Source of the DNA: Tridacna crocea
Taxonomy: Eukaryota > Mollusca > Bivalvia > Cardiida > Cardiidae
DNA length: 64,000 nucleotides
Assembly: GCA_943736015.1 (NCBI GenBank)
Contig: OX031061.1
Span: 61,882,192 to 61,946,191 of the forward strand
Reading direction: 5' to 3'
Of the stretch, positions 8 through 61,314 are shown one piece after another. The notes under the pieces are model-generated. The model saw only the letters and a list, made by a program, of their open reading frames with translations, did no database searches and was not told the DNA's origin. A program made the translations under genes and the position numbers. Position 1 is the first letter of the stretch, and each line of letters opens with the position of its first letter.

Positions 8-236
8 TTAACCCATTACCACACAATCCCTACTTTTGACGCCCCTGAGAAAGATGCCTTCAGAAAACATTGTGGGAAAAGGAGAAAATGCTGGTAACCA
101 GCATTTTCTCCTTTTCCCACGATGTTTTCTACCCTTCACAAAACAAATTTCAAATTTTCAGTCACTCTTATTTTGTCTTCTGTAAATGCTTTCATTTTGG
201 GCAGGCCTAAAATATTGTTGTTTGGTAATAAGTTAA
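8..236 (+). mobile_element. Family A1 MITE, complete
   Basis: TTAACCCATTACCAC at the left, TTGGTAATAAGTTAA at the right, 67-bp palindrome at 63-129 with one mismatch. Typical of the family: asymmetric flanks (left about 55 bp with CCCTACTTTTGACG, right about 100 bp with TGCAAATGCTTTCA-like sequence). Confidence 0.9.
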
Positions 237-255
237 AAGCCTTCTACTTTAGCTC

Positions 256-534
256 TTAACGAAACCACAAAATTTCAGACTAGTCTAAAATTGGAAGCAT
301 TATCAAATAGTAAAACTAAATGTAGCAAAAATTATGATTTTTTTCTTGGAAATGGTAGAAAAATATTTAGGAAGAGGAGAAAATGCTGGTTACCAGCATT
401 TTCTTCTTTTTCCACAATGTTTGCTAGCCATTTTCAGACTACCATTCTTTTCACTTTTTGGCTGCTTTTTAGTTGTAGCCTGCTGATGCTTGCGATTTTG
501 ACTAGTCCAAAATTTTGTCCTTTGGCACAGTGTT
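256..534 (-). mobile_element. Family A1 MITE, composite
   Basis: The left part is a minus-orientation copy with a GGTTACC centre. The right part reads as a plus-orientation end, so it is either a recombinant or two fused halves. Confidence 0.65.
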
Positions 535-543
535 AGCTTTAAG

Positions 544-775
544 TTCAATCCTTTACTACACAATCCTGACTTTTCATGACCCTGGGAAAGCGGCCTTATG
601 AAAAAATTGTTGGAAAAGGAGAAAATGCTGGTAACCAGCATTTTCTCCTTTTCCCACAATGTTTTTCTGTCCTTCCCAAAATAAATTTTGATTTTTCATT
701 TACGCTTATATTACTGTCTGCAAATGCTTTTAGTTCTGACTTGTCATAAATCTTGTTATACTGTAAAGAGTTCAA
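544..775 (+). mobile_element. Family A1 MITE, diverged
   Basis: Palindrome at about 601-666, ends CCTTTACTACACAATCC and CTGTAAAGAG; terminal TTAAs mutated. Confidence 0.8.
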
Positions 776-972
776 TTAAACCTTGTTGTTCAAAGAAGAT
801 GAGACAAGAATCTAAAAAACAGAATGACCAAGAAAAATATCAAGGATTTCAGTAAAAATTGTATGTAATTACTATAGTATTTGTTGCTCTGTATTGAGTT
901 ACCTTTCTTTATGTCACATGTCATCATTTTCTCCTTTTCCCTCAATGTTTTCCTATGGCTTGTTCCGTAAGA

Positions 973-1201
973 TTAACCCATTACCACACAATCCCTACTT
1001 TTGACAACCCTGAGAAAGAAGCCCTTAGAAAACATTGTGGGAAAAGCAGAAAATGCTGGTAACCAGCATTTTCTCCTTTTCCCACATTGTTTTCTACCCT
1101 TCACAAAACTAATTTCAAATTTTCAGTCACTTTTACTTTGTCGTCTGCAAGTGATGTAGATTTTGACAAATCAAAAACTTTGTCATTTGGTAAGGAGTTA
1201 A
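973..1201 (+). mobile_element. Family A1 MITE, complete
   Basis: TTAA at both ends, GGTAACC-centred palindrome. A 30-base hairpin-arm fragment of another copy lies at about 925-955. Confidence 0.88.
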
Positions 1202-1228
1202 TGAAAGAAATGTTTAGTTTGGCAAAGG

Positions 1229-1432
1229 GTTTATCCTTTACAACTCAATCTCAGATTTTGAAATAGGAAGAAGCCTTTCAAAAACATTGTGAGAAAAGGA
1301 GGACATGCCAATTCCTTTCTTCTACAATGTTTTCTATCCTTTTAAAGACAAATGTTATCATTTGAGCCATGTTTGACTCGTGGTTTTCAAATTCAGGCAT
1401 GTCCGACTTTTTCTTGTTTGGTAAGAATTTAA
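1229..1432 (+). mobile_element. Family A1 MITE, degraded
   Basis: Flanks recognisable, but the hairpin is reduced (GAGAAAAGGAGGACATGCC then CTTCTACAATG). Confidence 0.65.
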
Positions 1433-1449
1433 TGGATCGTGAAATCAAT

Positions 1450-1934
1450 GTAACTCATTACCAATCGACGATATTTTAGGCTTGTCCATATCAAAAGCAT
1501 TTGCAGAGGACAAAATAAAAGTGACTGAAATTTTGAAATTTGTTTTGTGAATGATAGAAAACATTCTAGGAAAAGGAGAAATTGCTGGTTACCAGCATTT
1601 TCTCTTTTTCCCACAATGTTTTCTAGAGGCTTCTTTCGGTGAGCGTGTCGACCTCATGACCTGGTGGTTGTGAGTTCGATACCCGGTTGAGGCGAACTTT
1701 CTTTCCGGTGTATTTATGCCTCTCACCTTTGCAGCAGCATGTGAGAAATGTAGTCGGTGGCTTTGGAAAGAAATTAGTGTTAGTACTGGTATGAGAACGC
1801 CAGGAAACACATGTGCATCTCTGACTGCCATGATACGACCTTAGCTGTTAAAGTGGCGTTAAACCCCAACACAACCAATAACAAGCATCTTTCTTAGGGT
1901 CATCAAAAGTAGATATTGTGTGGTTATGGGTTAA
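1450..1934 (-). mobile_element. Family A1 MITE split by a SINE
   Basis: The copy runs to 1637, is interrupted by a SINE, and resumes at 1885-1934 (TTAGGGTCATCAAAAGTAG ... ATGGGTTAA). Confidence 0.85.
1638..1884 (+). mobile_element. tRNA-derived SINE inserted in a family A1 copy
   Basis: Box B-like GTGAGTTCGATACCC near 1669. The tail region GGCGTTAAACCCCAACACAA near 1855 resembles molluscan SINE 3' ends. Flanked by GCTTCTTTC (1629-1637) and GCATCTTTC (1885-1893), a near-exact target-site duplication. Confidence 0.8.
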
Positions 1935-2314
1935 ATGTGACCGAAAATTATAGGAATATGACAATAACAGTTTAGTGATTTACCCCTGTGGTTCTAGGAT
2001 TCCAGTGCTTAGCTGGTATTGCCTTGTCCAAAGACATTTTGGAGAGACTGGCACATTTAGCTGGGATACAACCTCGATTTCATGACCAAAAATTGAACGT
2101 CTCAAGAACTCAGTAAGATAGAACAACGGCTTGAAGTTTAGATAAGTCAAAACAAAAAGAAATAATGGAAAAAATAATGGTAATTATACATATATTTTCA
2201 TTTTTGATTATTGCACCTCAATTAAGGTGTTTTGTCTTTTGTACAATATTTTGTATATATCTTCTATTTGAAGACTTCCGTTTTTGTAGAAGAAGGTTAA
2301 TTGTGTGTTCTGTG

Positions 2315-2618
2315 TTTAACCCTGTACCAGACAATCCCCAGTTTTTACAACCAAGAAGAAGAAACTGACCGAAAACATTGTGGGAAAAGGAGAAAATGCT
2401 GGTATCCAGCATTTTCTGTAACCAGCTTTTTCTCCTGTTCTCACAATGTTTTCGACCCTATCAAAGTCAGAAATCGTCATATTAAGAAAATTTAATTTGT
2501 TGTCTGCAGATGGTTTTACATGTAAGTTTCGAATTTTGAGTTAGAGCATTTATTTTGTCATCTGCAAATGCTTTCAATTTGGACAAGTCTAAAATTTTGT
2601 CATCTCTTAAAGAGTTAA
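2315..2618 (+). mobile_element. Family A1 MITE with internal duplications
   Basis: The hairpin centre is partly duplicated (GGTATCC then GTAACCAGC), and the right flank TGTCATCTGCAAATGC occurs twice. The right TTAA (2615) is shared with the next copy. Confidence 0.8.
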
Positions 2619-2838
2619 CCCTTTACCAAACAAGGAAATTTTAGTAGATTCCAAATTGAAAGCATTAGCAGATGACAAAATGAATATTACCGGTACTCAG
2701 AAATTAAAAGTTGTTCTGGAAAGGATAGAAAAACATTGTGGGGGAAAAGGAGATAATGCGGGTTCTCCTTTTGCTACAACGTTTTCACTAGCTTTCTTTC
2801 TTGGGTCATTAAAAGGCGGGAGTGTGCGGTAAAGTTAA
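2615..2838 (-). mobile_element. Family A1 MITE, chained
   Basis: TTAACCCTTTACCAAAC to GCGGTAAAGTTAA. The hairpin is shortened. It shares TTAA with both neighbours. Confidence 0.8.
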
Positions 2839-3013
2839 CCCTTTACCGATGAAGGCATTTCTTATGTGTAAATGACACCTTTTAATTGTATAGAAAACAT
2901 TGTGACAAAAGGTGAAATTGCTCGTCACGAGCAATTTCACCTTTTGCCACAATGTTTTCCAAAGGCTCCTACAAGCAATGTGTAGAAATGAGTATCTACG
3001 GAGTAAAGGGTTT
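2835..3013 (+). mobile_element. Family A2 MITE, shortened left flank
   Basis: Palindrome centred on CGTCACG with AAAAGGTGAAATTGC arms (about 2892-2958), right end GAGTAAAGGGTTTAA. Lacks the usual GGCATTTCTATGG... part of the left flank. Confidence 0.85.
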
Positions 3014-4226: not shown

Positions 4227-4455
4227 TTAACTCTTTCCCAAACAAGCCCTGGTTTTCATGTGTCTGCAGTACAAGTATTTAGAAAACACTGCGGGAAAAG
4301 GAGAAATTGCTCGTGACGAGCAATTTCTCCTCTTCCCACAGTGTTTTGTAGCCTATCGGAAAACTTTCTGCCATTCTCATCAAATTCAAAATTGTCATTC
4401 TGCAAACACTTTGAGGCTGGGACAGTCTAAAATTTGTCATTTGGGAAAGGGTTAA
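4227..4455 (+). mobile_element. Family A1/A2 hybrid MITE
   Basis: A1 flanks and outer arms, but the palindrome centre is the A2-type GCTCGTGACGAGC. TTAA at both ends. Confidence 0.85.
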
Positions 4456-4647: not shown

Positions 4648-4872
4648 ACTCTTTAACAAACAACAAATTTTTGGACTGGACCAGATTCAAAGCATTTGCA
4701 GACAAAAAATTAAATCTTGTTAATATGATGATTTCTGATTTGATGGGGTAGAAAATATTGGGGGAAAAGGAGAAAATACTAGTAACCAGCATTTTCTCCT
4801 TTTCCCAAAATGTTCTCTATAGGCTGCCTTCTTAGGGTAGTTAACAGTTGGGATTGTGTGGTAAAGGGTTAA
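4644..4872 (-). mobile_element. Family A1 MITE
   Basis: TTAACTCTTTAACAAAC to GTGGTAAAGGGTTAA. The hairpin is nearly intact, but its centre is TAGTAACCAGC. Confidence 0.85.
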
Positions 4873-4879: not shown

Positions 4880-5218
4880 AATGTGTTTTTGATGGGGTAT
4901 ACCAGTTACCAGGTTACCAAGATTTTTTCCTTCTACCACAATGTTTTCAGAAGGCTCTGTTTCTCAAAAGTCGCTAAAGTCGGGATGGTTTTGTAACTGA
5001 TAACCCTATACAACACAATGACAGTTTTAATGAGACTGAGGTAGAAGCCTATTGAAAACATTGTGGGGAAAGGGGAAAATTCTGGTAACCAGCATTTTCT
5101 CCTTTTCCCATAATGTTTTCAATCCTGTCAAATGGAAACTTGATCATGTTTGAATAATTTTTTACAAATGCTTTCAGGATGTCTTCATCTACATCCATTT
5201 CATGTGGTAAAGAGTAAG
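4880..5218 (+). mobile_element. Family A1 fragment followed by a full A1 copy
   Basis: 4880-4998 is a right-half fragment in minus orientation. 4999-5218 is a plus copy with palindrome at about 5052-5119 and right end GTGGTAAAGAG. Confidence 0.75.
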
Positions 5219-5450
5219 GTCTTTTCCAAATGACAAAAGTTTGGATTTATCTGTATAGAAAGAATTTGCAAGATGACAAATTTGGTTTGCTTTGTTGGAT
5301 TTGTGTGTGACAGGATGGAAAACATTGCAGGAAAAAGAGAAAATGTTGGGTACCAACATTTTTCTCCTTTTCTCACGTTGTATTCAAAGTTATTTTATCT
5401 TGTTTTCAAAAGGCTTTGTCCCAAGGGTCGTTGAAACTTGCCTTCTTCAG
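5219..5450 (-). mobile_element. Family A1 MITE with a paired arm change
   Basis: Centre GTTGGGTACCAAC, where most copies have GCTGG and CCAGC. The change is mirrored in both arms. Confidence 0.75.
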
Positions 5451-6387: not shown

Positions 6388-6615
6388 TTAACCCTGAACC
6401 AAACAATTCCTGGTTTTTACGACCCTGAGATAAAAGCCTTTTGAAAACATTGTGGGTAAAGGAGAAAATGCTGGTAACCAGCATTTTCTCCTTTTCCCTC
6501 AATGTTTACTCTCCTGTGGAAACAACTTTCAGTTTTTGAGTTAAGTTTATTTTGTCGTCTGCAATTGCTTTCAATTTGGACCAGTCTAAAATTTGGTTGT
6601 TTTGGAAAGGGTTAA
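6388..6615 (+). mobile_element. Family A1 MITE, complete
   Basis: TTAACCCTGAACCAAAC to GGAAAGGGTTAA; hairpin near 6443-6507. Confidence 0.9.
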
Positions 6616-7686: not shown

Positions 7687-7913
7687 TTAACTCTTTACCC
7701 CGTAAGGCATTTCTATGGTATCTCAAATTGACCCTAAATAACAGCAACGATGAAGCCGTTTCTTATGTATATGACGCCCTTTGATAGCACAGAAAACATT
7801 GTGACAAAAGGTGAAATTGCTCGTCACGAGCAATTTCACCTTTTGCCACAATGTTTTCCAAAGGCTCCTACAAGCAATACATAGAAATGAGTATCTATGG
7901 AGTAAAGGGTTAA
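7687..7913 (+). mobile_element. Family A2 MITE, complete
   Basis: TTAACTCTTTACCCCGTAAGG to GGAGTAAAGGGTTAA. CGTCACG palindrome with a single arm mismatch (GTGAC against GCCAC). Confidence 0.92.
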
Positions 7914-8729: not shown

Positions 8730-8961
8730 TTAACCCATTACCACACAATCCCTACTTTTGACGCCCCTGATAAGGAGGCCTTTTGAAAACACTGTGGGAA
8801 AAGGAGAAAATGCTGGTAACCATGCAGCATTTTCTCCTTTTCCCACAGTGTTTTCTACCCTTCCCAGAACAAATTTCAATTTTCAGTCACCTTTAATTTG
8901 TTGTCTGCAAATGCTTTCAATTTGGACCAGTCTAAAATTTCCTTGTGTGCTAAAGAGTTAA
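8730..8961 (+). mobile_element. Family A1 MITE, complete
   Basis: Hairpin has CACTG/CAGTG in both arms and a small insertion (ATGC) at the centre. Confidence 0.9.
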
Positions 8962-12949: not shown

Positions 12950-14551
12950 AAGCTCACCTGAGCACAACGTGCTCAAGGGGAGCTTTTAGGATTATCCGGT
13001 GTCCGTCGTGCGTCGTGCGTCGTGAGTCGTGCGTCGTGCGTCGTCAACAATTCTTTAAACATCAACTCCTCCTAAACCGCTGGGCAGATTTGGACCAAAC
13101 TTGGCAGGAATGTTCCAAAAAATTGTTCACAGAATTTGATTCCATCAAAAACTCTGGTTGCCATGGCAACTAAAAGGAATTTTTTAGTAAATTCTTCAAA
13201 AATCTTCTCCTCTGAAACCGCTGGTCCGATTTTGTAATAATTTCACAGATATGTTCCTTGGGTGACCCTTTTTAAAAAGTGGTCGTGAAATTTTGATTTG
13301 TCAAAAAATGTGGCTCTGGTGAATGGGGGCTACTTGCACTATACAGAAATGAAGGAATTCTTAAAAAATCTTCTTCTCTGAAACCGCTGGTCAGATTTTG
13401 AAATAATTTCACAGAGTTGCTCCCTTGGTGACCTTTTTCAAAAAATGTTCGCGAAATTTTGATTGGTCAAGAAACATGGCTCTGGTGAACGGGGGCTTCT
13501 TGCACTATACAGAAATGAAGAAATTCTTAAAAATTCTTCTTCTCTGAAACAGCTTGTTAGATTTTGAAATAATTTCACAGAGTTGTTCCTTGGGTGACTC
13601 TTTTTAAAAAAGTGTTCGCAAAATTTTGAATGGTCAAGAAACATGGCTCTGGTGAATGGAGGCTACTTGCACTATACAGAAATGAAGAAACTCTTAAAAA
13701 TTCTTCTTCTCTGAAACAGCTGGTTAGATTTTGAAATAATTTCACAGACTTGTTCCTTGGGTGACCCTTTTCAAAAATTGTTCGCGATATTTTGATTGGT
13801 CAAGAAACATGGCTCTGGTGAATGGGGGCTACTTGCAGTTTGCGCTATACAGAAATGAAGAAATTCTTGAAAATTCTTCTTCTTTGAAATGGTTGGACAA
13901 ATTTTGAAATAATTTCACAGAGATGTTCCTTGGGTAATCGTTTTCTAAAATTGTTCGCGAAATTTTGATTGGCCAAGAAACATGGCTCTGGTGAATGGGG
14001 GCTACTTGCACTATATGGAAATGAAGAAATTATTGAAAATTCTTCTTCTCTGAAACCCGTGGTCAGATTTTAAAATAATCTTACAGAGATGTTCCTTGGG
14101 TAACCCTTTTCAAAAGCTGTACATATAATTTTGATCCGTCAAGAAACATGGCTCTTGTGAATGGGGGCTACTTGCACTATACGGACATGATGAAATTCTT
14201 GAAAATTCTCTTTCTCTGAAACCCCTGGTCAGATTTTAAAAGAAATTTTCCGAAATGTTCCTTGGGTGACCCTTTTCAAAACTTGTTCGTAAATTTTGAT
14301 CCATCAAGAAACATGTATCGCGTGGATGGGGGCTACTTGCTCTTATACAGAAATGAAGAATTCTTAAAAATTCTCCTTTTTGAAACTGATGGTCAGATTT
14401 CGAAATGACTTTTACAGGTGCTTGGCAAAATTATAAATTTGGTTCCAATGTTTCAATACCTCAAAAAAGAAAAAAAAAAAAAAAAAAAAGACTATGGTTA
14501 TCTCAAAAATTCAGGTGAGCGATCCAGGGCCATCTTGGCCCTCTTGTTTTT
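12950..14551 (+). mobile_element. Pearl/Helentron-like element with about 167-bp tandem array
   Basis: Starts AGCTCACCTGAGCAC with a small hairpin (TGAGCAC/GTGCTCA). Ends TCAGGTGAGCGATCCAGGGC, then the GGGCCATCTTGGCCC hairpin and TCTTGTTTT. The ends therefore carry subterminal inverted repeats plus a 3' hairpin, as in Helentron-associated elements and bivalve pearl. The interior has about seven units of roughly 167 bp, each with CTGGTCAGATTTTGAAATAA and ATGGCTCTGGTGAATGGGGG. Short reading frames here reflect repeat periodicity only. Confidence 0.8.
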
Positions 14552-22115: not shown

Positions 22116-22349
22116 TTAACTCTTTGCCACACAGTGACAACTTTTAACGCCCATGAAAGAGAAAGCTTTTGAAAACATTATGGGAAAAGGAGAAAATGCT
22201 GGTAACCAGCATTTTCTTCTTTTCCCACAATGTTTTCTACCCTATCAAAGAAAAACCATCTGCTATGAGCCACATTGAAACTGTCATCTGCAAATGCTTT
22301 CAATTCGGATTGGTCTAAAAAAATTTTTTTTTGTGTGGTAAAGGGTTAA
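22116..22349 (+). mobile_element. Family A1 MITE in zinc-finger intron
   Basis: TTAACTCTTTGCCACAC to GTGGTAAAGGGTTAA; hairpin near 22168-22234. Confidence 0.9.
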
Positions 22350-22541: not shown

Positions 22542-22760
22542 TTAACCCTCTCCCAAACAATCCTTGGTTTTTACAACCCTGAGATAGAGGTCTTTTGAAA
22601 ACATTGTGGGAAAAGGAGAAAATACTGGTAAGCAGCATTTTCTCCTTTACCCACAATGTTTTCTACTCTCCTAGAAACAAATTTCAATTGTTTAGGTATG
22701 TTTATTATGCCGTCTGCAAACGCTTTCAATTTTAATTTTGTTGTTTGGTAAAGGGTTTAG
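22542..22760 (+). mobile_element. Family A1 MITE in zinc-finger intron
   Basis: TTAACCCTCTCCCAAAC to TGGTAAAGGGTTTAG; hairpin with a one-base centre change (GGTAAGC). Confidence 0.88.
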
Positions 22761-22785: not shown

Positions 22786-23016
22786 TTAACCCCTCACCAA
22801 ACAAAAAAAATTTTTAATGGTTTTAAAAGCACTAGCAGATGACAAAATAAACGTAACTAAAAAAATTGAAATTTGTTCCCAGCAGTGTAGAAAAGATTGC
22901 GGGGGAAAGGAGAAATGCTGGTTACCAGCATTTTCTCCCCAAGTTTTCCCACAATGTTTTCAAAATGTGTCTTCCTCAGGGTCATCAAAAGTCGACCCTG
23001 TGTAGTATAGGGTTAA
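22786..23016 (-). mobile_element. Family A1 MITE next to the splice acceptor
   Basis: TTAACCCCTCACCAAAC to TAGTATAGGGTTAA; GGTTACC centre; eight extra bases (CCCAAGTT) in one arm. Confidence 0.88.
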
Positions 23017-23040
23017 ATATTATTTTTTCGTCTTTTTCAG

Positions 23041-24617
23041 CCAAGAAAGTAATAGATCTTCATGATCATCAACAGTTTCATGGTAGTGGAGGATCTTATT
23101 ACTTTTGTCACGTTTCACAAACAGCTTATCCAAGGTACGAACTTGTATCTTTCGGAAGCCAGACAGAACCTATTGACTTCGCTCTTGTACAAACACTTGA
23201 CAGTACGTTCTTGAACAGTGAATTTGTATATTATGAAAATGAGGTGGTGGATCATATAGTAGAATTGAATGAAGAATCTGACAATACTCAAGATAAATCA
23301 GAAAACCTATCCGTTACACAAGCTGTATTGAAATCTAGAGTAGCCAAAACCACTGTCAAAGGAAGGAATAATAGAACGTCGAAAAAGAGTAAAAAAGGTT
23401 GTAAGAATAACTCGAGAAAAAAAGGAAAAAGAAATCAGATTACTTTAGTAAGTAAGGACTGTATGGACATCATAGAAGGTGAGATTGAGGAAAATGAATT
23501 ACTAGATAAAACGATAAATATAGATGATGGACAAAATATTTTAGATGTGACTCACAATCTGGATGTGACTGTAAGTGACACAAATGTGATTAGCAGCCTG
23601 CCTGATATGTTGGCGAATGGTGGAAAAGAAGTCACTGCAGAATTTCCGAGTAAAGAGTTAGATACAGAAGAACAGATTTTACATATAATCTCTGACCACA
23701 ACTATGAACATCCAGATTTGCAGGACCACAAATATTTGAAAGCTAACAATTTTCATGAATGTATTCTCTGTGAAAATGTCTCATTTCGGAGAAAGTTTCC
23801 GCTTCTGAAGCATTTTAAAACTCACCATGACAACGAGTTACCTTTTAAATGTGACAAATGTGATAAGAGGCTTGTTTCCTTATTTGATGCACAAAAACAT
23901 GTGAACACACATAACAAAGATCAGTTTGAATGCCAAGTATGTTTCAAGAAGTTTTCATCGGAACTGAATTTGACTGAGCATCTTACGACACATACTGGTG
24001 AAAAGCCATTTAAGTGCAATTTGTGCCCAAATGCTTATAAAAAGAAACTATCTCTAGATTCTCATATATTATCACATTCTGGTGTTAAATGTCATATTTG
24101 TGAATATTGCGGAAAAGCCTTTGCAAATCGTACTCAGGTTTTGAAGCACATTCGATGCTGTGTGAAGAAAGTTGAATGCGATGTCTGTAAAAAGATGTTT
24201 TCAGACCCATCTAAACTGAAATTGCACATGCGGAAACATACAGGAGAAAGACCTTATATATGTGAGTTGTGTGGCTGCGCTTTTGGACACCGCAGTGGTT
24301 TGTTAAGACATATGAAATTTATTCACACAAAACAGAAGGATTTCAAGTGTTCATTTTGTGAAAAGAGATTCGTTACCAAACAAACATTGGATCGGCATGA
24401 GAGAGTTCACACAACAATCAAAAGTCATATGTGTACCTACTGTGGAAAACCATTCAGAGAACTTTGGACGTTAAAAGTTCACACGCGATTACACACAGGG
24501 GAGACACCTTACAACTGTGATTATTGCGGACAGGGGTTCAAACACAATGTAGTTAGAAGAAAACATGAATTAAAATGTCACATGAAAGATTTTGGCGACC
24601 AAGGAATCTTAGCTTAA
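23041..24617 (+). CDS. Zinc-finger gene, terminal coding exon with C2H2 array
   Basis: Probable DNA-binding transcription factor of the nucleus. With the upstream exon the protein is about 550 residues. After the split N-terminal finger comes a long acidic, low-complexity region (about 45-260). It contains a lysine/arginine-rich stretch near 139-157 (KKSKKGCKNNSRKKGKR) that looks like a nuclear localisation signal. The C-terminal array starts near residue 264 and holds ten fingers up to residue 539. Most are C-x2-C-x12-H-x3-H. The fifth is C2HC (HIRCC in place of the final H), the first has 13 residues between C and H, and the seventh and tenth have H-x4-H. Canonical linkers TGEKPF, TGERPY and TGETPY follow the third, sixth and ninth fingers of the array; several other linkers are non-canonical. 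Stop is TAA at 24615. No KRAB, BTB or SCAN domain is visible. Orthology is not assignable from sequence alone. A family A transposon begins 40 bases after the stop, so the 3' UTR probably contains repeats. Confidence 0.93.
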
Positions 24618-25612: not shown

Positions 25613-25817
25613 TGACTAAATTTTGCACTGGACGAAAATGAAAGCATTTGCTGATGACATGTTTAAAGTAGCTCCAATGATAATTTTGTTCGGGTAGAAA
25701 ACAATATGGAAAAAGGAAAAAATGCTGGATACCAGCATTTTCTCCTTTTCCCACAACGTTTTCTAAAGCTTTCTACTGGGGGTCATTAAAACAGGGGGTA
25801 GTGTGGTAAAGTTTTAA
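25609..25817 (-). mobile_element. Family A1 MITE, chained
   Basis: Shares TTAA with neighbours on both sides. Centre GGATACC; right end GTGTGGTAAAGTTTTAA. Confidence 0.85.
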
Positions 25818-26048
25818 CCCTTTAGCCCATAAGACATTTCTATTGTATCTCTAATTGACCCTTGATAACAGCAAAGATGAAACAGTTTCTTATGTGTATA
25901 CGACACCTTTTGATAGCATAGAAAACATTGTGACAAAAGGTGAAATTGCTCGTCACGAGCAATTTCACCTTTTGCCACAATGTTTTCCAAAGGCTCCTAA
26001 AAGCAATAGTTATACGTAGAAATGAGTATCTATGGAGTAAAGGGTTAA
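25814..26048 (+). mobile_element. Family A2 MITE, chained
   Basis: TTAACCCTTTAGCCCATAAG to GGAGTAAAGGGTTAA; CGTCACG centre. Confidence 0.9.
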
Positions 26049-26488: not shown

Positions 26489-27657
26489 TTAGCTGGAATG
26501 TTCTTTGGGAGATCCTCTTTAAAAAGTGTTCACAGAATTTGATTTCATAAAAAACTCGGGTTGCAATGGCAACCAGATGGAATTTTCTATGAAATTATTT
26601 AAAATTAAAAATCTCTGAAACTGCAGGTCAGATTTTGAAATAATTTCACAGGGTTGTTCCTTGGGTGACCCTTTTCAAAAATTGTTTGGGAAATTTTTAT
26701 CCTTCAAAAAAACATGCCTTTCAAAAAGTGTTCGCGAAATTTTAATCCGTTTAGAAACATGGCTGTGGTGACTGGGGCCACTTGCCCTGTACAGATACAA
26801 AAACAAATTCTTACAATTTTTTCTTCTCTAAAACGGCTGGTCAGATTTTGAAATAATTTAATAAAGATGTTCCTTTGATGACCCTTTTCAAAAACTGTTC
26901 GCAAAGTTTTGATCCATCGAGAAACATGGCTCTGGTGAATGGGGGCTATTTTCCCTATACAGAAATGAGGAAATTATTAAAAATTCTTTTTCACTGAAAC
27001 GACTGGTCAGATTTTGAAATAATTTCACAGGGATGTTCCTTGGGTGACCCTTTTCAAAAATTGTTTGCGAAATTTTGATCCCTAAAAAAATATGGCTGAC
27101 TGGGGGCTACTTGCACTATGTGTAAATGAAGAAAATATTAAAATTTCTCTTTCTCTGAAACAGCTGGTCAGATGTTGAAACAATTTCACAGAGGTGTTCC
27201 TTGGTTGACCATTTTCTATAACTGTTTGCGAAATTTTGATCCCTCAAAAAACATGGCTCTGGTGAACGGGGGCTCTTTGCACTATATGTACATGAAGAAA
27301 TTCTTAAAATTTCTTCTTCTCCGAAACGGCTGGTCAGATTTTTGAAATGATTTCAGACAAATGTTCCTTTGGTGACCCTTTTCAAAAATTGTTTGCAAAA
27401 TGCTGATTCATTAAGAAACATGGCTCTGAGGGGGGAAGGCAACTTGCACAATATCGACATGAAGGAATTCTTAAAATTTCTTCTCTGAAACGGCTGGTCA
27501 GATTTTGAAATGATTTCACAGAAATGTTTCTTGGGTAACCCTTTTTGCGAATTGTTCGAGAATATTGATCCATCAAAAAACAGAATCTTCTCTGAAACCT
27601 CTGGTCAAATATAGAACACGCTGTGAGAAAGGTACAAAATGCTTGGAAGCCGCATTT
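26489..27657 (+). mobile_element. Pearl-like tandem array, 5' truncated
   Basis: Same ~167-bp monomers as 12950-14551 (ACTGGTCAGATTTTGAAATA), about six, more diverged. Confidence 0.75.
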
Positions 27658-30062: not shown

Positions 30063-30220
30063 ACCAATCCTCCAAGGTTTTCTAAATTTGTAAGTAACAC
30101 AACTTCTGATTGGCTAAACCGAATGGTTTAGCCAATCAGAAGTTGTGTTACTTACAAAGTAGAAAATTCTGGAGAATAAGACAAAGAACGTTTTTAAGAG
30201 TGGTTTGTGAATACGGGCCC
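30060..30220. mobile_element. MITE remnant with GGGCCCGTATTCAC-type end and long hairpin
   Basis: The right end reads TTTGTGAATACGGGCCC, a terminal repeat seen in many invertebrate MITEs. The left part holds a long inverted repeat. Confidence 0.5.
30087..30158. repeat. Perfect 34-bp inverted repeat, 4-base loop
   Basis: Arms 30087-30120 and 30125-30158 are exactly complementary around GAAT. The inner ends carry two facing ATTGG/CCAAT boxes. Confidence 0.95.
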
Positions 30221-30807: not shown

Positions 30808-31038
30808 TAATAACCCTTTACCCCATAAGGCATTTCTATGGTATCTCTAATTGACCCTAAATAACAGCAAGGATGAAGCCGTTTCTTATGTGTATATGAC
30901 ACCTTTTGATAGCATAGAAAACATTGTGGCAAAAGGTGAAATTGCTCGTCACGAGCAATTTCACCTTTTGCCACAATGTTTTCCAAAGGCTCCTACAAGC
31001 AATGCGTAGAAATGAGTATCTATGGAGTAAAGGGTTAA
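30808..31038 (+). mobile_element. Family A2 MITE with perfect 67-bp palindrome
   Basis: Palindrome 30917-30983: arms of 33 bp exact around one central C. Right TTAA intact. Confidence 0.93.
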
Positions 31039-31342: not shown

Positions 31343-31572
31343 ATTAACTCTTTACCACACAAGAAAATTTTAGACTGGTCCAAATTGAAAGCACTTGCAG
31401 AATGCAAAACAAAGGTGACTGAAAAATAGAAATTTGTTCTGGAAAGGGTAGAAAACACTGTGGGAAAAGGAGAAAATGCTGGTTACCAGCATTTTCTCCT
31501 TTTCCCACAGTGTTTTCAAAAGTCTTCTTTCTCAGGGGCGTCAAAAGTAGGGATTGTGTGGTAATGGGTTAA
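31343..31572 (-). mobile_element. Family A1 MITE, young-looking
   Basis: Perfect 67-bp palindrome with CACTG/CAGTG arms. Almost identical to 51952-52180. Confidence 0.93.
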
Positions 31573-33068: not shown

Positions 33069-33298
33069 TTCAACCCTTTACCCCATAAGGCATTTCTATG
33101 GCATCTCTAATTGACCCTAAATGACAGCAAGGATGAAGCTGTTTCTTATGTGTAAATGACACCCATTGATAGCATAGAAAACATTGTGACAAAAGGTGAA
33201 ATTGCTCGTCACGAGCAATTTCACCTTTTGCCACGATGTTTTCCAAAGGCTCCTACAAGCAATGTGTAGAAATGAGTATCCATGGAGTAAAGGGTTAA
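33069..33298 (+). mobile_element. Family A2 MITE, complete
   Basis: CAACCCTTTACCCCATAAGG to GGAGTAAAGGGTTAA; CGTCACG palindrome at about 33176-33242. Confidence 0.9.
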
Positions 33299-34104: not shown

Positions 34105-34333
34105 TTAACTCATTACCACACGAGAAAATTTAGGACTGGTCCAAATTGAAAGCATTTGCAGATGACAAAATAAAGGTGACAGAAAAATAGAAATTTGTTC
34201 TGGAAAGGGTGGAAAACACTGTGGGAAAAGGAGAAAATGCTGGTTACCAGCATTTTCTCCTTTTCCCACAATGTTTTCAAAAGGCTTCTTTCTCAGGGGC
34301 GTCAAAAGTAGGGATTGAGTGGTAATGGGTTAA
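34105..34333 (-). mobile_element. Family A1 MITE, complete
   Basis: TTAACTCATTACCACACGAG to GTGGTAATGGGTTAA; CACTG in one arm but CAATG in the other. Confidence 0.92.
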
Positions 34334-37345: not shown

Positions 37346-37573
37346 GTTTTTATAAGACAACAAAATTCTAGACCAGTCAAAATTGCTAGCATTTCACGAT
37401 ATATTAAATAACATTCAAAAGATGGAATTCGTGTTAAATAAGGTAGAAAACATGATGAGTAAAGGAGAAAATGCTGGTTACCAGCATTTTCTCCTTTTCT
37501 GATGTTATTTTCAAAAGTCTTTTTTTTTTCCGTATGGTGGTAAAAAGTCGCGTTTGTGTTATGAAAAAGTAAA
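37346..37573 (-). mobile_element. Family A1 MITE
   Basis: Hairpin GGAGAAAATGCTGGTTACCA intact, outer arms changed in both (ATGATGAGTAAAGG / CCTTTTCTGATGTTA). Confidence 0.8.
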
Positions 37574-37900: not shown

Positions 37901-38130
37901 AATAACCCTTTCCCAAACAATCCCTGGTTTTTACGGGTCTGGAATAATAGCCTTTTGAAAACATTGTGGGAAAAGGAGAAAATGCTGGTAACCAGAATTT
38001 TCTCCTTTTCCCACAATGTTTTCTACCCTATCATAGACAGATATCATCTTTTCAGCAAGAGTTGAATTGTCGTCTGCAAATGCTTTCAATTTGGTCTAGT
38101 CCAAAAAATTGTCGTTTGGGAAATAGTTAA
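37901..38130 (+). mobile_element. Family A1 MITE, CCCTGG subtype
   Basis: AACCCTTTCCCAAACAATCC left end with ACGGGTCTGGA, shared with 50653-50882. Confidence 0.9.
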
Positions 38131-39124: not shown

Positions 39125-39230
39125 GATCATGCATTTGAAAACATTGTGTGTAAGGGGGAGAAAATACTGGTGACCAGCATTTTCTCCCATTTGCACACAT
39201 TTTTTTAAAAACGTTTCAAATTACATATTT
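39125..39230. mobile_element. Family A1 hairpin fragment with paired arm changes
   Basis: GTGTGTAAGGGGGAGAAAA against TTCTCCCATTTGCACAC: both arms differ from the norm in the same way. Confidence 0.7.
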
Positions 39231-39507: not shown

Positions 39508-39736
39508 TTAACTCTTTACCACACGAGAAAATTTTAGACCGGTCCAAAATGAAAGCATTTGCAGACGACAAAAATAATGGTGACTAAAAATAGAAATTTG
39601 TTCTGGGAAGGGAAGAAAACACTGATGGGAAAAGGAGAAAATGCTGGTTACCAGCATTTTCTCCTTTTCACATCGTGTTTTCAAAAGGCTTCTTTCTCAG
39701 GGGAGTCAAAAGTAGGGATTGTGTGGTAATGGGTTA
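39508..39736 (-). mobile_element. Family A1 MITE, complete
   Basis: TTAACTCTTTACCACACGAG to GTGGTAATGGGTTAA; GATG present in both arms. Confidence 0.92.
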
Positions 39737-42641: not shown

Positions 42642-42867
42642 CCCTTTACTCCATAAAAACTCATTTTGACGCATCAACAACAAACAACTTTTGAAAACAT
42701 TGTGGGAAAAGGAGAAATTGCTCGTAACGAGCAATTTCTCCTTTTCCCGCAATGTTTTCCACTCAGTCAGATATTTGTATCCTTATTTGTCCATATTTTT
42801 GACATCATATCTTTATTTGCTGCTGAAGTGGAAGAACCTCAAATTGGCATATCAGGTAAAGGGTTAA
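42638..42867 (+). mobile_element. Family A hybrid MITE, chained
   Basis: TTAACCCTTTACTCCATAAA start like A2; arms like A1 (GTGGGAAAAGGAGAAA); centre GCTCGTAACGAGC, a third core type. Confidence 0.88.
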
Positions 42868-50249: not shown

Positions 50250-50452
50250 TATACCAAACGACAGAATGTTAGACAAGTCCAAATTGAAAGCATTTTGCAG
50301 ACGACAAAAAAAAAATCAGACACCGAATTTGTTTGTGTAATTCTTGCAAACATTGTGGGAAAAGGAGAAAATGCTGGTAACCAGCATTTTCTACTTTTTC
50401 CATAATGTTTTCAAGGCCGTTTAATTATTGGATTTACCCGTAAAAGGACAAA
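50250..50452 (-). mobile_element. Family A1 MITE
   Basis: Minus flanks but GGTAACC centre, one of the exceptions to the centre/orientation rule. Confidence 0.8.
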
Positions 50453-50577
50453 AAACATTGTGGAAAAAGTAGAAAATGCTGGTTATCAGCATTTTCTCCT
50501 TTGCTCACATTTCTTTTTAAAGTTTTATTTTCTGAAGGGTTGTTGAAAAACAAGACTCTTTGGTAAAAGATTAAATA
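50450..50577 (-). mobile_element. Family A1 right half
   Basis: AAAACATTGTGGAAAAAGTA then TTTGGTAAAAGATTAA. Confidence 0.7.
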
Positions 50578-50652: not shown

Positions 50653-50882
50653 ATAAACCCTTTCCCAAACAATCCCTGGTTTTTACGGGTCTGGATTAGA
50701 AGCCTTTTGAAAACATTGTGGGAAAAGGAGAAAATGCTGGTAACCAGCATTTTATCCTTTTCCCACAATGTTTTCTACCCTATCATATAGAAAAATCATC
50801 TTTTTAGCAACTGGTAATTTGTTATCTGCAAGATGCTTTAAATTTGTTCTGGTCCAGAATTTATCGTTTGGGAAAGGGTTAA
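50653..50882 (+). mobile_element. Family A1 MITE, CCCTGG subtype
   Basis: Close relative of 37901-38130. Preceded by a 35-bp minus left-end fragment. Confidence 0.9.
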
Positions 50883-51204: not shown

Positions 51205-51370
51205 TCGAGTATACGTCAAATATTAGGGAATGTGGCTTTGGAAGGGCAGAAAAAATATAGGAAAAGGAGAAAATGCTGGTTACCAGTATTTTCTCCTTTT
51301 CCTACAATGTTTTCAAAAGACTTCTAATTCAGGGTCGTTGAAAGCTGGGAATGTTTGGTAAAAGATGTAT
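51205..51370 (-). mobile_element. Family A1 MITE, left flank lost
   Basis: Hairpin with TAGGAAAAGG/CCTTTTCCTA paired in both arms. Confidence 0.8.
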
Positions 51371-51420: not shown

Positions 51421-51649
51421 TTAACCCATTACCAAATAATAGAATTTTAGGTTTGTCCAGATCGAAAGCATTTGCGGACAACAACATACGATTGACTGAA
51501 AATTTGAAATTTGGTTGATGAAGGGTAGAAAACATTGTGGAAAAAGGAGAAAATGCTGGTTACCAGCATTTTCTCCTTTTCCCACAATTTTTTCTAAAGG
51601 CTTCTTTCTCAGGGTCGTCAAAAGTAGGGATTGTGTGGTAATGGGTTAA
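51421..51649 (-). mobile_element. Family A1 MITE, complete
   Basis: TTAACCCATTACCAAAT to GTGGTAATGGGTTAA. Confidence 0.92.
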
Positions 51650-51951: not shown

Positions 51952-52180
51952 TTAACTCTTTACCACACGAGAAAATTTTAGACTGGTCCAAATTGAAAGC
52001 ATTTGCAGACGACAAAATAAAGGTGACTGAAAAATAGAAATTTGTTCTGGGAAGGGTAGAAAACACTGTGGGAAAAGGAGAAAATGCTGGTTACCAGCAT
52101 TTTCTCCTTTTCCCACAGTGTTTTCAAAAGGCTTCTTTCTCAGGGGCGTCAAAAGTAGGGATTGTGTGGTAATGGGTTAA
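51952..52180 (-). mobile_element. Family A1 MITE, youngest-looking
   Basis: Perfect 67-bp palindrome at 52059-52125. TTAA both ends. Differs from 31343-31572 at only a few bases. Confidence 0.95.
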
Positions 52181-52327: not shown

Positions 52328-52556
52328 TTAACCCTTTACCAAACAATCCCTAGTTTTTACGACCCTGAGATAGAAGCCTTTTGAAAACATTGTGGGAAAA
52401 GGAGAAAATGCTGGTAACCAGCATTTTCTCCTTTTCCTACAATGTTTTCTTCCCCGCTGGAAACAAATTTCAATTTTTGAATTATGTTTATTTCGTCGTC
52501 TATAAGTGCTTTGAATTTGGACCAGTCTAAAATTTTGTTGTTTGGGAAAGGGTTAA
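52328..52556 (+). mobile_element. Family A1 MITE, complete
   Basis: TTAACCCTTTACCAAAC to GGGAAAGGGTTAA. Confidence 0.92.
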
Positions 52557-54352: not shown

Positions 54353-54576
54353 CCCTTTACTCCATCGATACTCATTTCTACGCATTACTTGAAGGAGCCC
54401 TTGGAAAACATTGTGGCAAAAGGTGAAATTGCTCGTGACGAGCAATTTCACCTTTTGTCACAATGTTTTCTATGCTATCAAAAGGTGTCATATACACATA
54501 AGAAACGGCTTCATCCTTGCTGTTATTTAGGGTCAATTAGGGATACCATAGAAATGCCTTATGGAGTAAAGGGTTA
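54349..54576 (-). mobile_element. Family A2 MITE, complete
   Basis: TTAACCCTTTACTCCATCG to TGGAGTAAAGGGTTAA; GTGACGA centre, as expected for reversed A2. Confidence 0.93.
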
Positions 54577-54816: not shown

Positions 54817-55045
54817 TTAACCCATTACCACACAATCCCTACTTTTGACGACCCTGAGAAAGAAGCCTTTAGAAAACATTGTGGGAAAAGGAGAAAATGC
54901 TATTAACCAGCATTTTCTCCTTTCCCCTCAATGTTTTCTACCCTTCACAAAACAATTTTCAAATTTCCAGTCGCATTTATTTTGTTGTCTGCAAATGCTT
55001 TCAATTTTGACCAGTCTATAAAATTGTCGTTTGGTAATGAGTTAA
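54817..55045 (+). mobile_element. Family A1 MITE, complete
   Basis: TTAACCCATTACCACAC to TTGGTAATGAGTTAA; centre ATTAACC. Confidence 0.92.
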
Positions 55046-56749: not shown

Positions 56750-57158
56750 AAAGTTTCAATTTTAGACTGGTCCAAATTAAAAACAAGGGCAGATAAAAAA
56801 TATATGTGACACAAATACTAAAATCTGCCTTTTGCAAGGTTAAAATTCATTGTGGGGAAAGGCCAAAAATGCTGGTTACTACACAGTCCCGACTTTTAAC
56901 GAACTCTAAAATGAAAGCTTTTGAAAACATTGTGGGTAAAGGCGAAAATGCTGGTAACCAGCATTTTCACCTTTTGCCACAATGTTTTCAAAAAGCTTCT
57001 TTTTCAGGGTCGTTAAAAGTTGGGACTTCTTGTAGATCTACCACAATGTTTTCAAAAGCCTTTTTTCGTAGAGTGGTTAAAAGTCGGGACTACTTTTCCC
57101 ATAATCTTTTCAAAAGCCTTCTTTTTCAGGGTCGTTAAAGTCGGGATTGTGTGGTTCA
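56750..57158. mobile_element. Family A1 MITEs, overlapping, right end triplicated
   Basis: A minus left half joins a plus left half at ACACAGTCCCGAC. The hairpin has GGCGAAAATG/CATTTTCACC. The right end (ATGTTTTCAAAAGCCTT ... GTTAAAAGTCGGGAC) then occurs three times. Confidence 0.75.
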
Positions 57159-57905: not shown

Positions 57906-57936
<31 letters not shown>

Positions 57937-59142: not shown

Positions 59143-59351
59143 GAGTTTTTGGACTGGTCCAAATTCAAAGCTAATGCAGACGATAAAATACATGTAAATG
59201 CAATTTGAAATTTATATGGGAAAGGGTAGAAAAAAAATGTGGGAAAAGGAGAAAATGCTGGTTACCAGCATTTTCTCCTTTTTCCACAATATTTTCAAAA
59301 GGCTTTTTTCTCAGGGTCTTTAAAAGTCGGAATTGTGTGGTAAAGGGTTAA
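59143..59351 (-). mobile_element. Family A1 MITE, left end lost
   Basis: Intact inner hairpin, right end TGTGGTAAAGGGTTAA. Confidence 0.85.
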
Positions 59352-59371
59352 ATAATTTGATACTATTATGT

Positions 59372-59500
59372 CTTTGGAAGGGTAAAAAATATTGTTGGAA
59401 TAGAAGAAAATGCTAATATCCAGCATTTTCTCCTTTTCTGCAATGTTTTCTGACACCTCTTTCTTTATAGTGGTGTTAGAAGACGGGACTGTTTGATAAT
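59372..59500 (-). mobile_element. Family A1 fragment
   Basis: Hairpin ATGCTAATATCCAGCAT. Confidence 0.65.
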
Positions 59501-59642
59501 CATGAATTAGATTAGGTCCCGAATATGTGTTTCACCCTGAAGTAATTTATATCTATTACTTATGATTTTTTCAATTAACTTTTTTGCGTCACAAAAGCTT
59601 CGCTTATTAGAGATTATCAAATATCTGTCTGAATTCCTTCCC

Positions 59643-59712
59643 TTAACTCTGTACCAAACGACAAAACTGTACACTGCTTCGAGACTATAAGCATTCGCAG
59701 ACGACAAATTTA
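59643..59712 (-). mobile_element. Family A1 left-end fragment
   Basis: TTAACTCTGTACCAAACGAC to TTCGCAGACGACAAATTTAA, cut at the TTAA where family C starts. Confidence 0.7.
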
Positions 59713-59922
59713 ACCCCTTTGGCTCCTAAGCGCGACTCGCTGACCTTTTGCGGACAGTATAGATCAACATCAGACTGCACAAAACGTGCAGTCTGATCTT
59801 TGATCTACACTGTCCGATTAGCAGATATCATTCCCCAAATCATAACTTTGTAACAGCAATATTTGGGTTATTAATATCGACTTGAAAATTTAATTTTAAT
59901 TATTTAGCAGGATAAGGTTTAA
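59710..59922 (+). mobile_element. Family C MITE, complete, chained
   Basis: TTAACCCCTTTGGCTCCTAA; hairpin ATCAGACTGCACAAAACGTG ...; end TTTAGCAGGATAAGGTTTAA, TTAA shared with F. Confidence 0.88.
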
Positions 59923-60298
59923 GGTAAGACCTGTGTAATGGAAAACAGCTATTTCCACTAAAATATCATCCTGCAAAATTAGCTATAATTAAAAATGAGT
60001 ATTATTGAACTACTTTCACCAATTCATTTTTTCCATTTTTTCCTTCTTTGAATTATCATTTATAAACCTAAAACCACTATATTCTCAATTGAAAAAGAGA
60101 TAATAATTACCTCCCTTTTCAGAAAACTAACAAAAGTATCAACAAATAATTTCAAGATAGACATAAACGAAATATCTGATCCGTTGGAAATGTGCAAAAA
60201 TATTATTTCTGCATAAATCCTTATTTATTCTTATTTATCAATCAATTAGGAATTTCACCGGAAGTGCATTACACAGGTCTTACCTTAAGGCGGCTCAG
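59919..60298 (-). mobile_element. Family F MITE, copy 2
   Basis: Reverse complement of 10427-10788. TTAAGGTAAGACCTGTGTAA and its mirror, TTAA at both ends. Confidence 0.92.
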
Positions 60299-60372
60299 GT
60301 GGTAGAATTAGTCTTCGATAGGATAGAAAACAATGCAGGAAAAACCTTTGCTGGTTACCAGCATCCCCCCTT

Positions 60373-60590
60373 TTAACTCATTACCAAACGACAAAATTTT
60401 AGGATTGTCCAAATTGAAAGCATTTGCAGACGACAAAATAAAAGTGACTGAAAAATTGAAATTTGTCTTGTGAAGGGTAGAAAACATTGTGGGAAAAGGA
60501 GAAAATGCTGGTTACCAGCATTTTCTCCTTTTCCCACGTTTTGTGAAGGCTTCTTTCTCAGGGGCGTCAAAAGTAGGGATTGTGGGTTAA
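60373..60590 (-). mobile_element. Family A1 MITE, outer right arm shortened
   Basis: TTAACTCATTACCAAACGAC to GATTGTGGGTTAA; preceded by a 60-base hairpin fragment. Confidence 0.88.
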
Positions 60591-60819
60591 ACAATGTTTT
60601 CAAAAGCCTGTCTCATTCAGGGCCGTGTAAAAATCTGCATTTTGTGGCAACAGGTTAACAGAGATAGCAATATTTGATTTGTTATAATTAACCCCTTAAC
60701 GACAGAAGTTTTAATTTTGCAAACGAAATATCAACTAAGGCTGACACCAATGTACTTGTGTCTTTGATATAGAGTAGAAAACATTTTTGGAAAAGAGGAG
60801 AAAATGCTGGCTACCAGCT

Positions 60820-60960
60820 TCGACCTGGGTCCTCGAGGTCACGAGTCCTGCACTGATACACTAAGTCATGCACGACCTGCCTGCTTAAGAATATCGGGCA
60901 ACAGTCTGTCTAAAAAGACCAATGTCTTGATTTCCCATCCTGCCAAAGATAAAGTTAAAC
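60820..60960 (-). mobile_element. SINE-like remnant
   Basis: CGAGGTCACGAGTCCTGCAC and AAGTCATGCACGACCTGCC recall reversed box B and box A. Confidence 0.4.
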
Positions 60961-60984
60961 CCTAGTGTGACTTTTACTACTATA

Positions 60985-61017
60985 TATAGTAGTGTAGATC
61001 AAGATCAGACTGCACAA
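60985..61017. mobile_element. Family C hairpin-arm fragment
   Basis: TAGTGTAGATCAAGATCAGA then CTGCACA, one arm only. Confidence 0.6.
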
Positions 61018-61064
61018 TGTTACGGGAGACCACTCCTTCATGCTGTAGTTTAGGTATTGGTCTT

Positions 61065-61314
61065 TTAACCCATAACCTCACAATCCCTACTTTTGACGCC
61101 CCTGGAAAAGAAGTCTTTTGAAAACATTGTGGTAACCAGCATTTTGTCCTTTTCCCACAATGTTTTCTACTCTTCACAAAACAAATTTTTAGTTTTCAGT
61201 CACTTTTATCTTGTGGTCTGCAATTGCTTTCAATTTGGACAAGCCTTAGATATTGTTGTTTGGTAATGAGCAGGGATCGTATATAACCGATAGAATCCCT
61301 GGTAATGAGTAAAC
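61065..61314 (+). mobile_element. Family A1 MITE with mini-insert
   Basis: Left arm shortened (ACATTGTGGTAACCAGC). The right end contains the 31-bp hAT-like insert. Confidence 0.88.
61271..61301. mobile_element. 31-bp hAT-like mini-element
   Basis: CAGGGATCGTATAT ... ATAGAATCCCTG flanked by exact 8-bp repeats GTAATGAG (61263-61270, 61302-61309). The host site in other A1 copies has one GTAATGAG. Confidence 0.75.

What the first reader, a model, noticed from the sequence alone, without database searches (positions are those of the whole stretch)
8..61314. Palindrome arms of the A family co-vary: subfamilies differ by mirrored pairs of changes
A1 and A2 hairpins differ at arm positions 14, 21, 26 and 31 of 33 (G/C, A/T, A/T, G/C), and each change is matched by its complement in the other arm. 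Individual copies show further mirrored changes: CACTG/CAGTG (8730, 31343, 51952), GTTGG/CCAAC (5219), TGTGTGYAA in both arms (39125), GATG in both arms (39508). Independent mutation would break pairing. So either one arm templates repair of the other, or the stem is selected (as DNA cruciform or RNA hairpin).
Basis: partly seen in the sequence, partly recalled or inferred. Interest (0 to 1): 0.8.

Follow-up and report, generated by a model that had tools for sequence, protein, structure and literature searches.

The report
Mirror-evolving palindrome inside abundant mobile element
A tiny mobile DNA element, present in very high numbers in a one-billion-base genome, carries a 67-base palindrome whose two halves differ between lineages by matching pairs of changes, while individual copies mostly let the halves decay separately; this suggests that matched halves help the element spread.

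Summary
The 'A family' is a 229-bp element, TTAACCC...GGGTTAA (TTAA target sites, piggyBac-type ends), with a 33+1+33 palindrome at element positions 56-122. The exact A1 core occurs 242,497 times in the 1.05-Gb genome; I estimate about 0.7 million palindromes. Subfamilies defined by flanks alone differ by mirrored arm changes (positions 8, 14, 21, 26, 31). The A1 core has 242,497 sites, the core mirrored at 26+31 29,913, one-arm hybrids 16. On a flank tree, internal branches carry 10 mirrored and 19 single-arm changes, and no unmirrored double change.

Within a copy the arms are no more alike than the opposite arms of its nearest relative. In the two larger samples, variants seen once are as frequent in arms as in flanks, while shared variants are depleted in the inner arms. 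At two test positions mirrored doubles exceed an unmirrored control only 1.2-1.4-fold.

Best reading: matched arms are selected while lineages propagate, most likely as a two-fold-symmetric binding site (inference). Arm copying in source elements is not excluded.

The parts
8..236 (+). full-length A1 element, TTAA to TTAA, palindrome 63-129
973..1201 (+). full-length A1 element, palindrome 1028-1094
54817..55045 (+). full-length A1 element, palindrome 54872-54938
31344..31572 (-). A1 element of the CACTG sub-subfamily, palindrome 31451-31517, arms perfectly matched
51952..52180 (-). A1 element of the CACTG sub-subfamily, palindrome 52059-52125, arms perfectly matched
34105..34333 (-). near-identical flanks to the two above, palindrome 34212-34278 with the C in one arm only
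8730..8855 (+). A1 CACTG copy, left flank and palindrome; the palindrome (8785-8855) has a 4-bp insertion near its centre
30917..30983 (-). A2 palindrome, arms perfectly matched (mirrored 14, 21, 26, 31 against A1)
2893..2959 (-). A2 palindrome with the unmirrored position-13 change
7792..7858 (-). A2 palindrome with the unmirrored position-13 change
25921..25987 (-). A2 palindrome with the unmirrored position-13 change
33177..33243 (-). A2 palindrome with the unmirrored position-13 change
54404..54470 (+). A2 palindrome with the unmirrored position-13 change
4282..4348 (+). third type (mirrored 8, 26, 31), palindrome
42693..42759 (+). palindrome with mirrored 26 and 31 but A1 state at 8, 14 and 21
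358..424 (-). A1 palindrome, decayed arms
600..666 (+). A1 palindrome
1557..1623 (-). A1 palindrome
4751..4817 (-). A1 palindrome; centre base A although the flanks are in reverse orientation
5054..5120 (+). A1 palindrome
5318..5385 (-). decayed palindrome with mirrored position 29 (GTTGG)
6443..6509 (+). A1 palindrome
22171..22237 (+). A1 palindrome
22597..22663 (+). A1 palindrome
25697..25763 (-). A1 palindrome
37446..37512 (-). A1 palindrome, decayed
37957..38023 (+). A1 palindrome
39136..39208 (.). palindrome with the two-base-longer TGTGTGYAA form in both arms, centre 39172
39615..39682 (-). palindrome cited for GATG; ambiguous
50346..50412 (.). A1 palindrome, flanks unusual
50451..50517 (-). 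A1 palindrome
50709..50775 (+). A1 palindrome
51248..51314 (-). A1 palindrome
51528..51594 (-). A1 palindrome
52383..52449 (+). A1 palindrome
56923..56989 (.). palindrome flanked by left-type sequence on both sides
59230..59296 (-). A1 palindrome
60480..60546 (-). A1 palindrome

Best explanation
The A family is a 229-bp non-autonomous, piggyBac-type (TTAA) MITE with an estimated 0.7 million palindrome copies. Its internal 67-bp dyad is under selection during propagation. Source elements with two matched half-arms leave many descendants; those with mismatched arms leave fewer. New half-arm sequences therefore become established as mirrored pairs, while inserted copies afterwards decay, each arm largely on its own. 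Shown here: mirrored subfamily differences, near-absence of one-arm hybrids of the two main cores, depletion of shared variants in the inner arms, and single-copy changes as frequent in arms as in flanks in the two larger samples. Inferred: that the dyad acts in transposition, and that it does so as a two-fold-symmetric protein site, for instance for the two C-terminal domains of a piggyBac-type transposase dimer or for a host dimer. How both halves come to change on one branch, by two mutations or by one arm-copying event, is open.
For: Flank-defined clusters have matched consensus arms (0, 1, 0, 0, 0 mismatches for the five clusters of 7 or more copies; a 3-copy cluster has 6). Consensi c0, c2 and c3 have identical palindromes with flanks 74-87% identical. 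Genome-wide: A1 core 242,497, core mirrored at 26+31 29,913, hybrids 7+9=16. Flank tree of 172 copies: internal branches 10 mirrored, 19 single, 0 double-but-different; independence expects 0.24 doubles, or 1.66 mirrored if branch totals are kept. Mirrored internal branches lead to 2-55 copies; the 11 of 19 single-arm ones with 3 or more copies lead to 3 each except A2 position 13 (19). Private against shared variant types: inner arm 22 against 9, flank 80 against 155 (Fisher p=1.2e-4, n=77); 25 against 1 and 109 against 82 (p=5e-5, n=30). Within-copy arms no more alike than cross-copy arms. Centre base diverges like flank (20 of 132; flank mean 22.7; inner arm mean 4.5), while position 33, in the loop of the predicted fold, is conserved (3 and 5 of 132). 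Known piggyBac and piggyBat transposase dimers bind palindromes through their C-terminal domains (passages of PMC11707139).
Against: No autonomous partner was shown. There are 118 piggyBac transposase matches, some of them fragments of one copy. Flanking DNA was fetched for 11 (two on one side only); by my reading an element end can be recognised for 5, and none matches the MITE ends; the ends of the other 6 were not determined. In A2 (n=19) single-copy types are also depleted in arms: 20 in 62 columns against 96 in 122, which fits leakage of shared variants in a small sample but could mean a post-insertion effect. A2 itself succeeded with an unmirrored position-13 change. For the outer arm the shared/private contrast is weaker (p=0.064 and 0.009). 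Terminal branches show a two-fold mirrored excess (34 against 15.9 expected; 21 of the 34 on branches with 7 or more arm changes). A mirrored two-base length change in the single copy at 39125 looks like arm copying. Position 32 is more variable than 33 (14 and 7 of 132). A palindrome 55 and 107 bp from the ends does not match the known terminal layout of piggyBac sites.
Confidence: 0.56

Rival explanations
1. One arm templates the other (replication template switching, hairpin or cruciform mismatch repair, or a transposition-coupled copying step). Mirrored changes arise in one step, in source elements, and spread by hitchhiking without selection for pairing.
For: Internal-branch double changes are all mirrored (10 of 10) and one-arm hybrids are almost absent (16). 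The single copy at 39125 has a similar two-base-longer form in both arms. Template switching between inverted-repeat arms is known to homogenise arms and invert spacers (passages of PMC8604942; abstract and start of the introduction of PMC8794818). The centre base shows an excess of the complement: A to T 10 of 12 changes against 40% in flanks, p=0.003; G to C 3 of 5, p=0.035. Mirrored doubles at positions 29 and 28 exceed the unmirrored control 1.39- and 1.19-fold.
Against: Resident copies show little of it (about 95 excess in 16,844 mutated copies). Neutral arm copying does not by itself lower arm divergence, yet shared inner-arm variants are depleted.
Confidence: 0.24
2. The stem is selected as an RNA hairpin (a transcript protected or processed through the stem).
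For: The palindrome is predicted to fold into a 32-bp stem with a 3-base loop (-53 kcal/mol), and covariation as such fits.
Against: No strand bias in G-U-compatible mismatches (140 top, 161 bottom; inner arm 46 and 60). Position 33 is conserved although it lies in the loop. No transcript or small-RNA data were available.
Confidence: 0.08
3. The palindrome is a mobile module exchanged between diverged flanks (ectopic conversion), so subfamilies simply carry different ready-made palindromes.
For: The same arm sequence is found with flanks only 74-87% alike; A2 and the third type share mirrored 26 and 31 with flanks 58% (left) and 37% (right) identical.
Against: The palindrome sits at the same place in all five consensi, and flanks remain alignable. 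A simple order of descent explains the shared states. It does not explain why palindrome variants are mirrored in the first place.
Confidence: 0.08
4. Artefact of ascertainment: copies were found because they hold a palindrome.
For: The first sets were collected by palindrome similarity.
Against: Collection by the left flank alone gives the same contrast: 143 of 193 copies have a gap-free palindrome, inner arm divergence 0.031-0.035, right flank 0.125-0.16. Exact genome-wide counts do not depend on the sample.
Confidence: 0.02

Closest known systems
CMITE, piggyBac-type MITEs of Acropora corals (PMC2872659)
   Same: TTAA target sites, short TIRs (family I begins CCCTTTCCC), internal region more conserved between families than the TIRs, tandem arrays, authors suggest a role of the internal region in transposition (passages and section 15 seen).
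   Different: About 100 bp against 229 bp; words beginning 'palindrom' do not occur in the paper's text; no mirrored arm changes in the parts seen; internal sequences are in figures and could not be compared.
piggyBac and piggyBat transposon ends (PMC11707139)
   Same: TTAA sites (recalled for these elements); palindromes in the ends are bound by the two C-terminal domains of the transposase dimer (passages).
   Different: Those palindromes are short (19 bp in piggyBac, 14 bp for the innermost piggyBat one) and in the terminal regions; here 67 bp, 55 and 107 bp from the tips; no transposase was linked to it.
Template-switch maintenance of hairpins and inverted repeats (PMC8794818, PMC8604942)
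   Same: Predicts mirrored double changes and spacer inversion (abstract and start of introduction; passages).
   Different: As a replication process it should act in every resident copy; here it is hardly visible there and the mirrored changes are concentrated in source lineages.

Membership tests
piggyBac-type MITE | TTAA at both ends, unique sequence outside | tested here: met
   146 of 193 flank-found copies have TTAA at the 5' end, 128 of 193 at the aligned 3' end; the 20 upstream columns show only A/T-rich background
piggyBac-type MITE | short TIR with CCY start and RRG end | tested here: met
   subfamily consensi start TTAACCC and end GAG or GGG before TTAA; TIR of about 12 bp by eye
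piggyBac-type MITE | small, uniform size | tested here: met
   consensi run TTAA to TTAA in 229 bp (c0-c3) or 228 bp (c4); the extraction window was 229 bp, so the TTAA at both ends is the evidence; 71 of 193 copies align with no gap, 120 of 193 with at most 5 gap columns
piggyBac-type MITE | ends shared with an autonomous piggyBac element of the same genome | tested here: inconclusive
   118 transposase matches, some fragments; flanks of 11 fetched (two on one side only); ends recognised for 5 begin TTAACCCTTTATATACG, TTAACCCTAGTCATGCGGG or TTAACCCTTTCAGTGCGGG and differ; the rest not determined or not fetched
CMITE | internal region more conserved than the rest between families | tested here: met
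   palindrome 85-100% identical between consensi, left flank 58-87%, right flank 37-87%
CMITE | sequence homology of the internal region | not testable with these tools
   the CMITE sequences are only in figures of the paper, which are not held
structural RNA stem | compensatory changes | tested here: met
   38 doubly changed cells against 8.9 shuffled
structural RNA stem | G-U pairs favoured on one strand | tested here: not met
   140 top-strand against 161 bottom-strand wobble-compatible mismatches
inverted repeat maintained by ongoing template switching | mirrored changes in resident copies well above an unmirrored control | tested here: not met
   1.39- and 1.19-fold at two positions, pooled 1.26-fold

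The most novel reading that the evidence does not exclude
The palindrome is an internal transposition enhancer: a two-fold-symmetric recognition site whose half-site sequence shifts in step with the recognising protein, so that bursts of the MITE are marked by mirrored half-site changes. Hundreds of thousands of copies then record a readable history of protein-DNA co-evolution. A bolder variant is that both halves are copied from one arm during transposition.
Probability: 0.3. Interest if true: 0.75.

Novelty: new variant of a known kind. Interest (0 to 1): 0.55.

Why it matters
It separates two things that usually look alike: repair between palindrome arms and selection for matched arms. With hundreds of thousands of copies, changes seen once (decay of copies) and shared changes (success of source elements) can be told apart, much as polymorphism and divergence are in genes. 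The result points to an internal palindrome as a determinant of MITE success, a question raised for the internal region of coral CMITEs and left open in the parts of that paper seen here, and it is testable in a transposition assay with perfect, one-arm and mirrored-double mutants.

Tried and rejected
Rejected or set back: ongoing arm-to-arm repair as the main cause; RNA hairpin as the favoured form; ascertainment artefact; Kolobok as the host family (passages of PMC9587614 only: Kolobok ends are RR..YY, the element here begins CCC). The identity of the organism was not established: 1,048,827,098 bases in 31 contigs; contig lengths seen are C1-C14 (48-77 Mb) and C18 (40 Mb); one literature look at top shells led nowhere. 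Papers were searched; no title or abstract start in the listed results (at most 12 per search) names this element or a mirrored-arm MITE. Papers opened: PMC9587614, PMC11707139 and PMC8604942 (passages), PMC2872659 (passages and section 15), PMC8794818 (outline with abstract and start of introduction). No RNA-family search and no structure prediction was run.

Rows dropped: of 262 palindrome-found copies 173 were kept (each arm at most 9 mismatches from A1 or A2, full flanks, 18 tandem duplicates removed), and 172 used in the tree. Of 213 left-flank-found hits 20 identical ones were removed, and 50 of the remaining 193 had gaps in the palindrome. CpG columns were left out. The covariation count used 60 of 70 representatives. 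An early nearest-neighbour test still held tandem duplicates and was replaced. One search failed on a script error and was rerun. The last genome count (single-arm change at position 26 alone) did not complete, so the 63 copies mirrored at 26 alone have no control. An oriented genome-wide count of the centre base was planned and not run.


Full report
What is there. The window is G000:C6:61882192-61946191 of an unnamed assembly of 1,048,827,098 bases in 31 contigs. The inverted-repeat scan lists many 33+1+33-nt palindromes, and a direct scan finds 59 sites within 24 mismatches of the A1 or A2 palindrome, some of them overlapping. Outside the palindrome the copies align from TTAACCC to GGGTTAA or GAGTTAA. 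Five flank-defined subfamily consensi run TTAA to TTAA in 229 bp (c0-c3) or 228 bp (c4), with the palindrome at 56-122. TTAA is present at the 5' end of 146 and the 3' end of 128 of 193 flank-found copies, and the 20 bases upstream show only A/T-rich background. This is the anatomy of a piggyBac-type MITE.

How many. The core GAAAATGCTGGTNACCAGCATTTTC occurs 242,497 times in the genome; the reversed control pattern occurs 0 times. In 25 stretches of 10 kb at set coordinates (250 kb) there are 170 palindromes within 22 mismatches and 58 exact cores, which gives about 0.71 million palindromes by density and the same by scaling the core count. These stretches include a few satellites in which the element is repeated.

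Does it co-vary. A1 (c0, c2, c3) and A2 (c1) differ by mirrored 14, 21, 26 and 31; a third type (c4) differs from A1 by mirrored 8, 26 and 31. The CACTG change (position 8) marks a sub-subfamily with six flank diagnostics; 11 of 14 copies with that flank type are C/C, the other three T/T, C/T and T/C. On an alignment of 60 of 70 flank-cluster representatives the arm pairing shows 38 doubly changed cells, against 8.9 +/- 2.8 in shuffles and 5-20 when partners are slid. The sharpest figure is genome-wide: A1 core 242,497, core mirrored at 26 and 31 29,913, and only 7+9=16 copies with one arm of each kind. Mirrored 26 alone has 63 copies, for which the single-arm control was not obtained.

When does it co-vary. 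On a tree built from flanks only (172 copies) internal branches carry 10 mirrored double changes, no double change that is not mirrored, and 19 single-arm changes. Independence expects 0.24 doubles, or 1.66 mirrored ones if the number of changes per branch is kept. Mirrored branches lead to 2-55 copies; the 11 single-arm ones with 3 or more copies lead to 3 each, except A2 position 13 (19). The reconstruction treats each arm column on its own, and repeated events at position 8 may partly reflect errors of the tree. Terminal branches carry 538 single, 34 mirrored and 21 different doubles, with 15.9 mirrored expected; 21 of the 34 lie on branches with 7 or more arm changes, and 2 on the 75 branches with at most 2 arm changes. 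The arms of a copy are not more alike than one arm and the opposite arm of its nearest relative: 1.94 against 1.54 mismatches for 48 copies with relatives at 90% or more flank identity, and 3.42 against 3.16 for 64 copies at 80-90%.

Private and shared changes. In 77 copies of c0 type (CpG columns left out) variant types seen once, per column, are 0.65 in the inner arm, 0.69 in the outer arm and 0.66 in the flanks, while types shared by three or more copies are 0.26, 0.72 and 1.27. In 30 copies of c2 type single-copy types are 0.74, 1.06 and 0.89, shared 0.03, 0.28 and 0.67. Fisher tests against flanks give p=1.2e-4 and 5e-5 for the inner arm, 0.064 and 0.009 for the outer arm. In 19 copies of A2 type single-copy types are lower in arms (0.31-0.33) than in flanks (0.79); that sample is small, so that 'seen once' is a poor proxy for 'private', but it is a result against simple neutrality. 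Flank-only ascertainment gives the same contrast in total divergence: inner arm 0.031-0.035, outer arm 0.058-0.069, right flank 0.125-0.16.

Genome-wide test of ongoing repair. At arm position 29 (C to T) there are 3,556+3,480 single-arm and 182 mirrored copies; independence expects 51. At position 28 (G to A) there are 4,686+4,665 and 275; 90 expected. The unmirrored control, 29 in one arm and 28 in the other, has 174 copies per combination against 68 expected, a ratio of 2.57 that I take to measure uneven age and shared descent; at least one tandem array is among its listed places. Mirrored doubles exceed this control by 1.39 and 1.19. Repair between arms of resident copies, if real, accounts at these two positions for about 95 of 16,844 mutated copies. 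One window copy, at 39125, does carry a similar two-base-longer form in both arms (29 of 36 arm positions agree); no other copy in the DNA held has it.

Mechanism. Constraint on the palindrome acts while lineages propagate, and it acts on the match of the arms, because the sequence itself changes between subfamilies. The constraint is strongest in the inner half of the arms. The centre base evolves like flank (20 of 132), while position 33, in the loop of the predicted fold, stays conserved (3 and 5 of 132); position 32 is less so (14 and 7). Wobble-compatible mismatches show no strand bias. These points favour a two-fold-symmetric DNA site over a hairpin; the binding protein is unknown. Transposases of the piggyBac type bind palindromes through two C-terminal domains (passages of PMC11707139), and 118 piggyBac transposase matches, many with open frames, some fragments of one copy, are in the genome. 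Flanks fetched for 11 of them (two on one side only) show recognisable ends for 5, none of which matches the MITE ends; A-family copies lie near several of them as separate insertions. Arm copying in source elements remains possible: the centre base shows more complement changes than expected, as template switching would give (passages of PMC8604942), although a symmetric site indifferent to A or T would give the same.

Against the known. Coral CMITEs share the TTAA sites, the type of ends and the conserved internal region; a palindrome and mirrored changes are not described in the parts seen. The listed results of my searches show no paper on this element. I file it as a new variant of a known kind.

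Noticed in passing
L002, L017, L019, L013: The element is repeated inside local satellites: copies every about 1,670, 1,635, 1,853 and 854 bp, with near-identical flanks.
   Followed up: partly
window 56885-57027: Extended palindrome (71-nt arms, 83% complementary) in which both flanks are of the left type.
   Followed up: no
window 2548-2685: Two right-hand flanks head to head, as from abutting or nested insertions at a TTAA.
   Followed up: no
window 30087-30158: A different, perfect 34-bp palindrome with a 4-nt loop.
   Followed up: no
element consensi c0 and c1: All four A1/A2 mirrored differences are complement changes (G to C, A to T), whereas flank differences are of all kinds.
   Followed up: partly
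element position 89 (palindrome centre): The unpaired centre base shows mostly complement changes: A to T in 10 of 12, G to C in 3 of 5. Window copy 4751 has an A centre in reversed flanks.
   Followed up: partly
window 22866-24617: Open reading frame of 583 aa with C2H2 zinc fingers.
   Followed up: no
window 13189-14406 and 26719-27582: Related tandem arrays with a 166-bp period.
   Followed up: no
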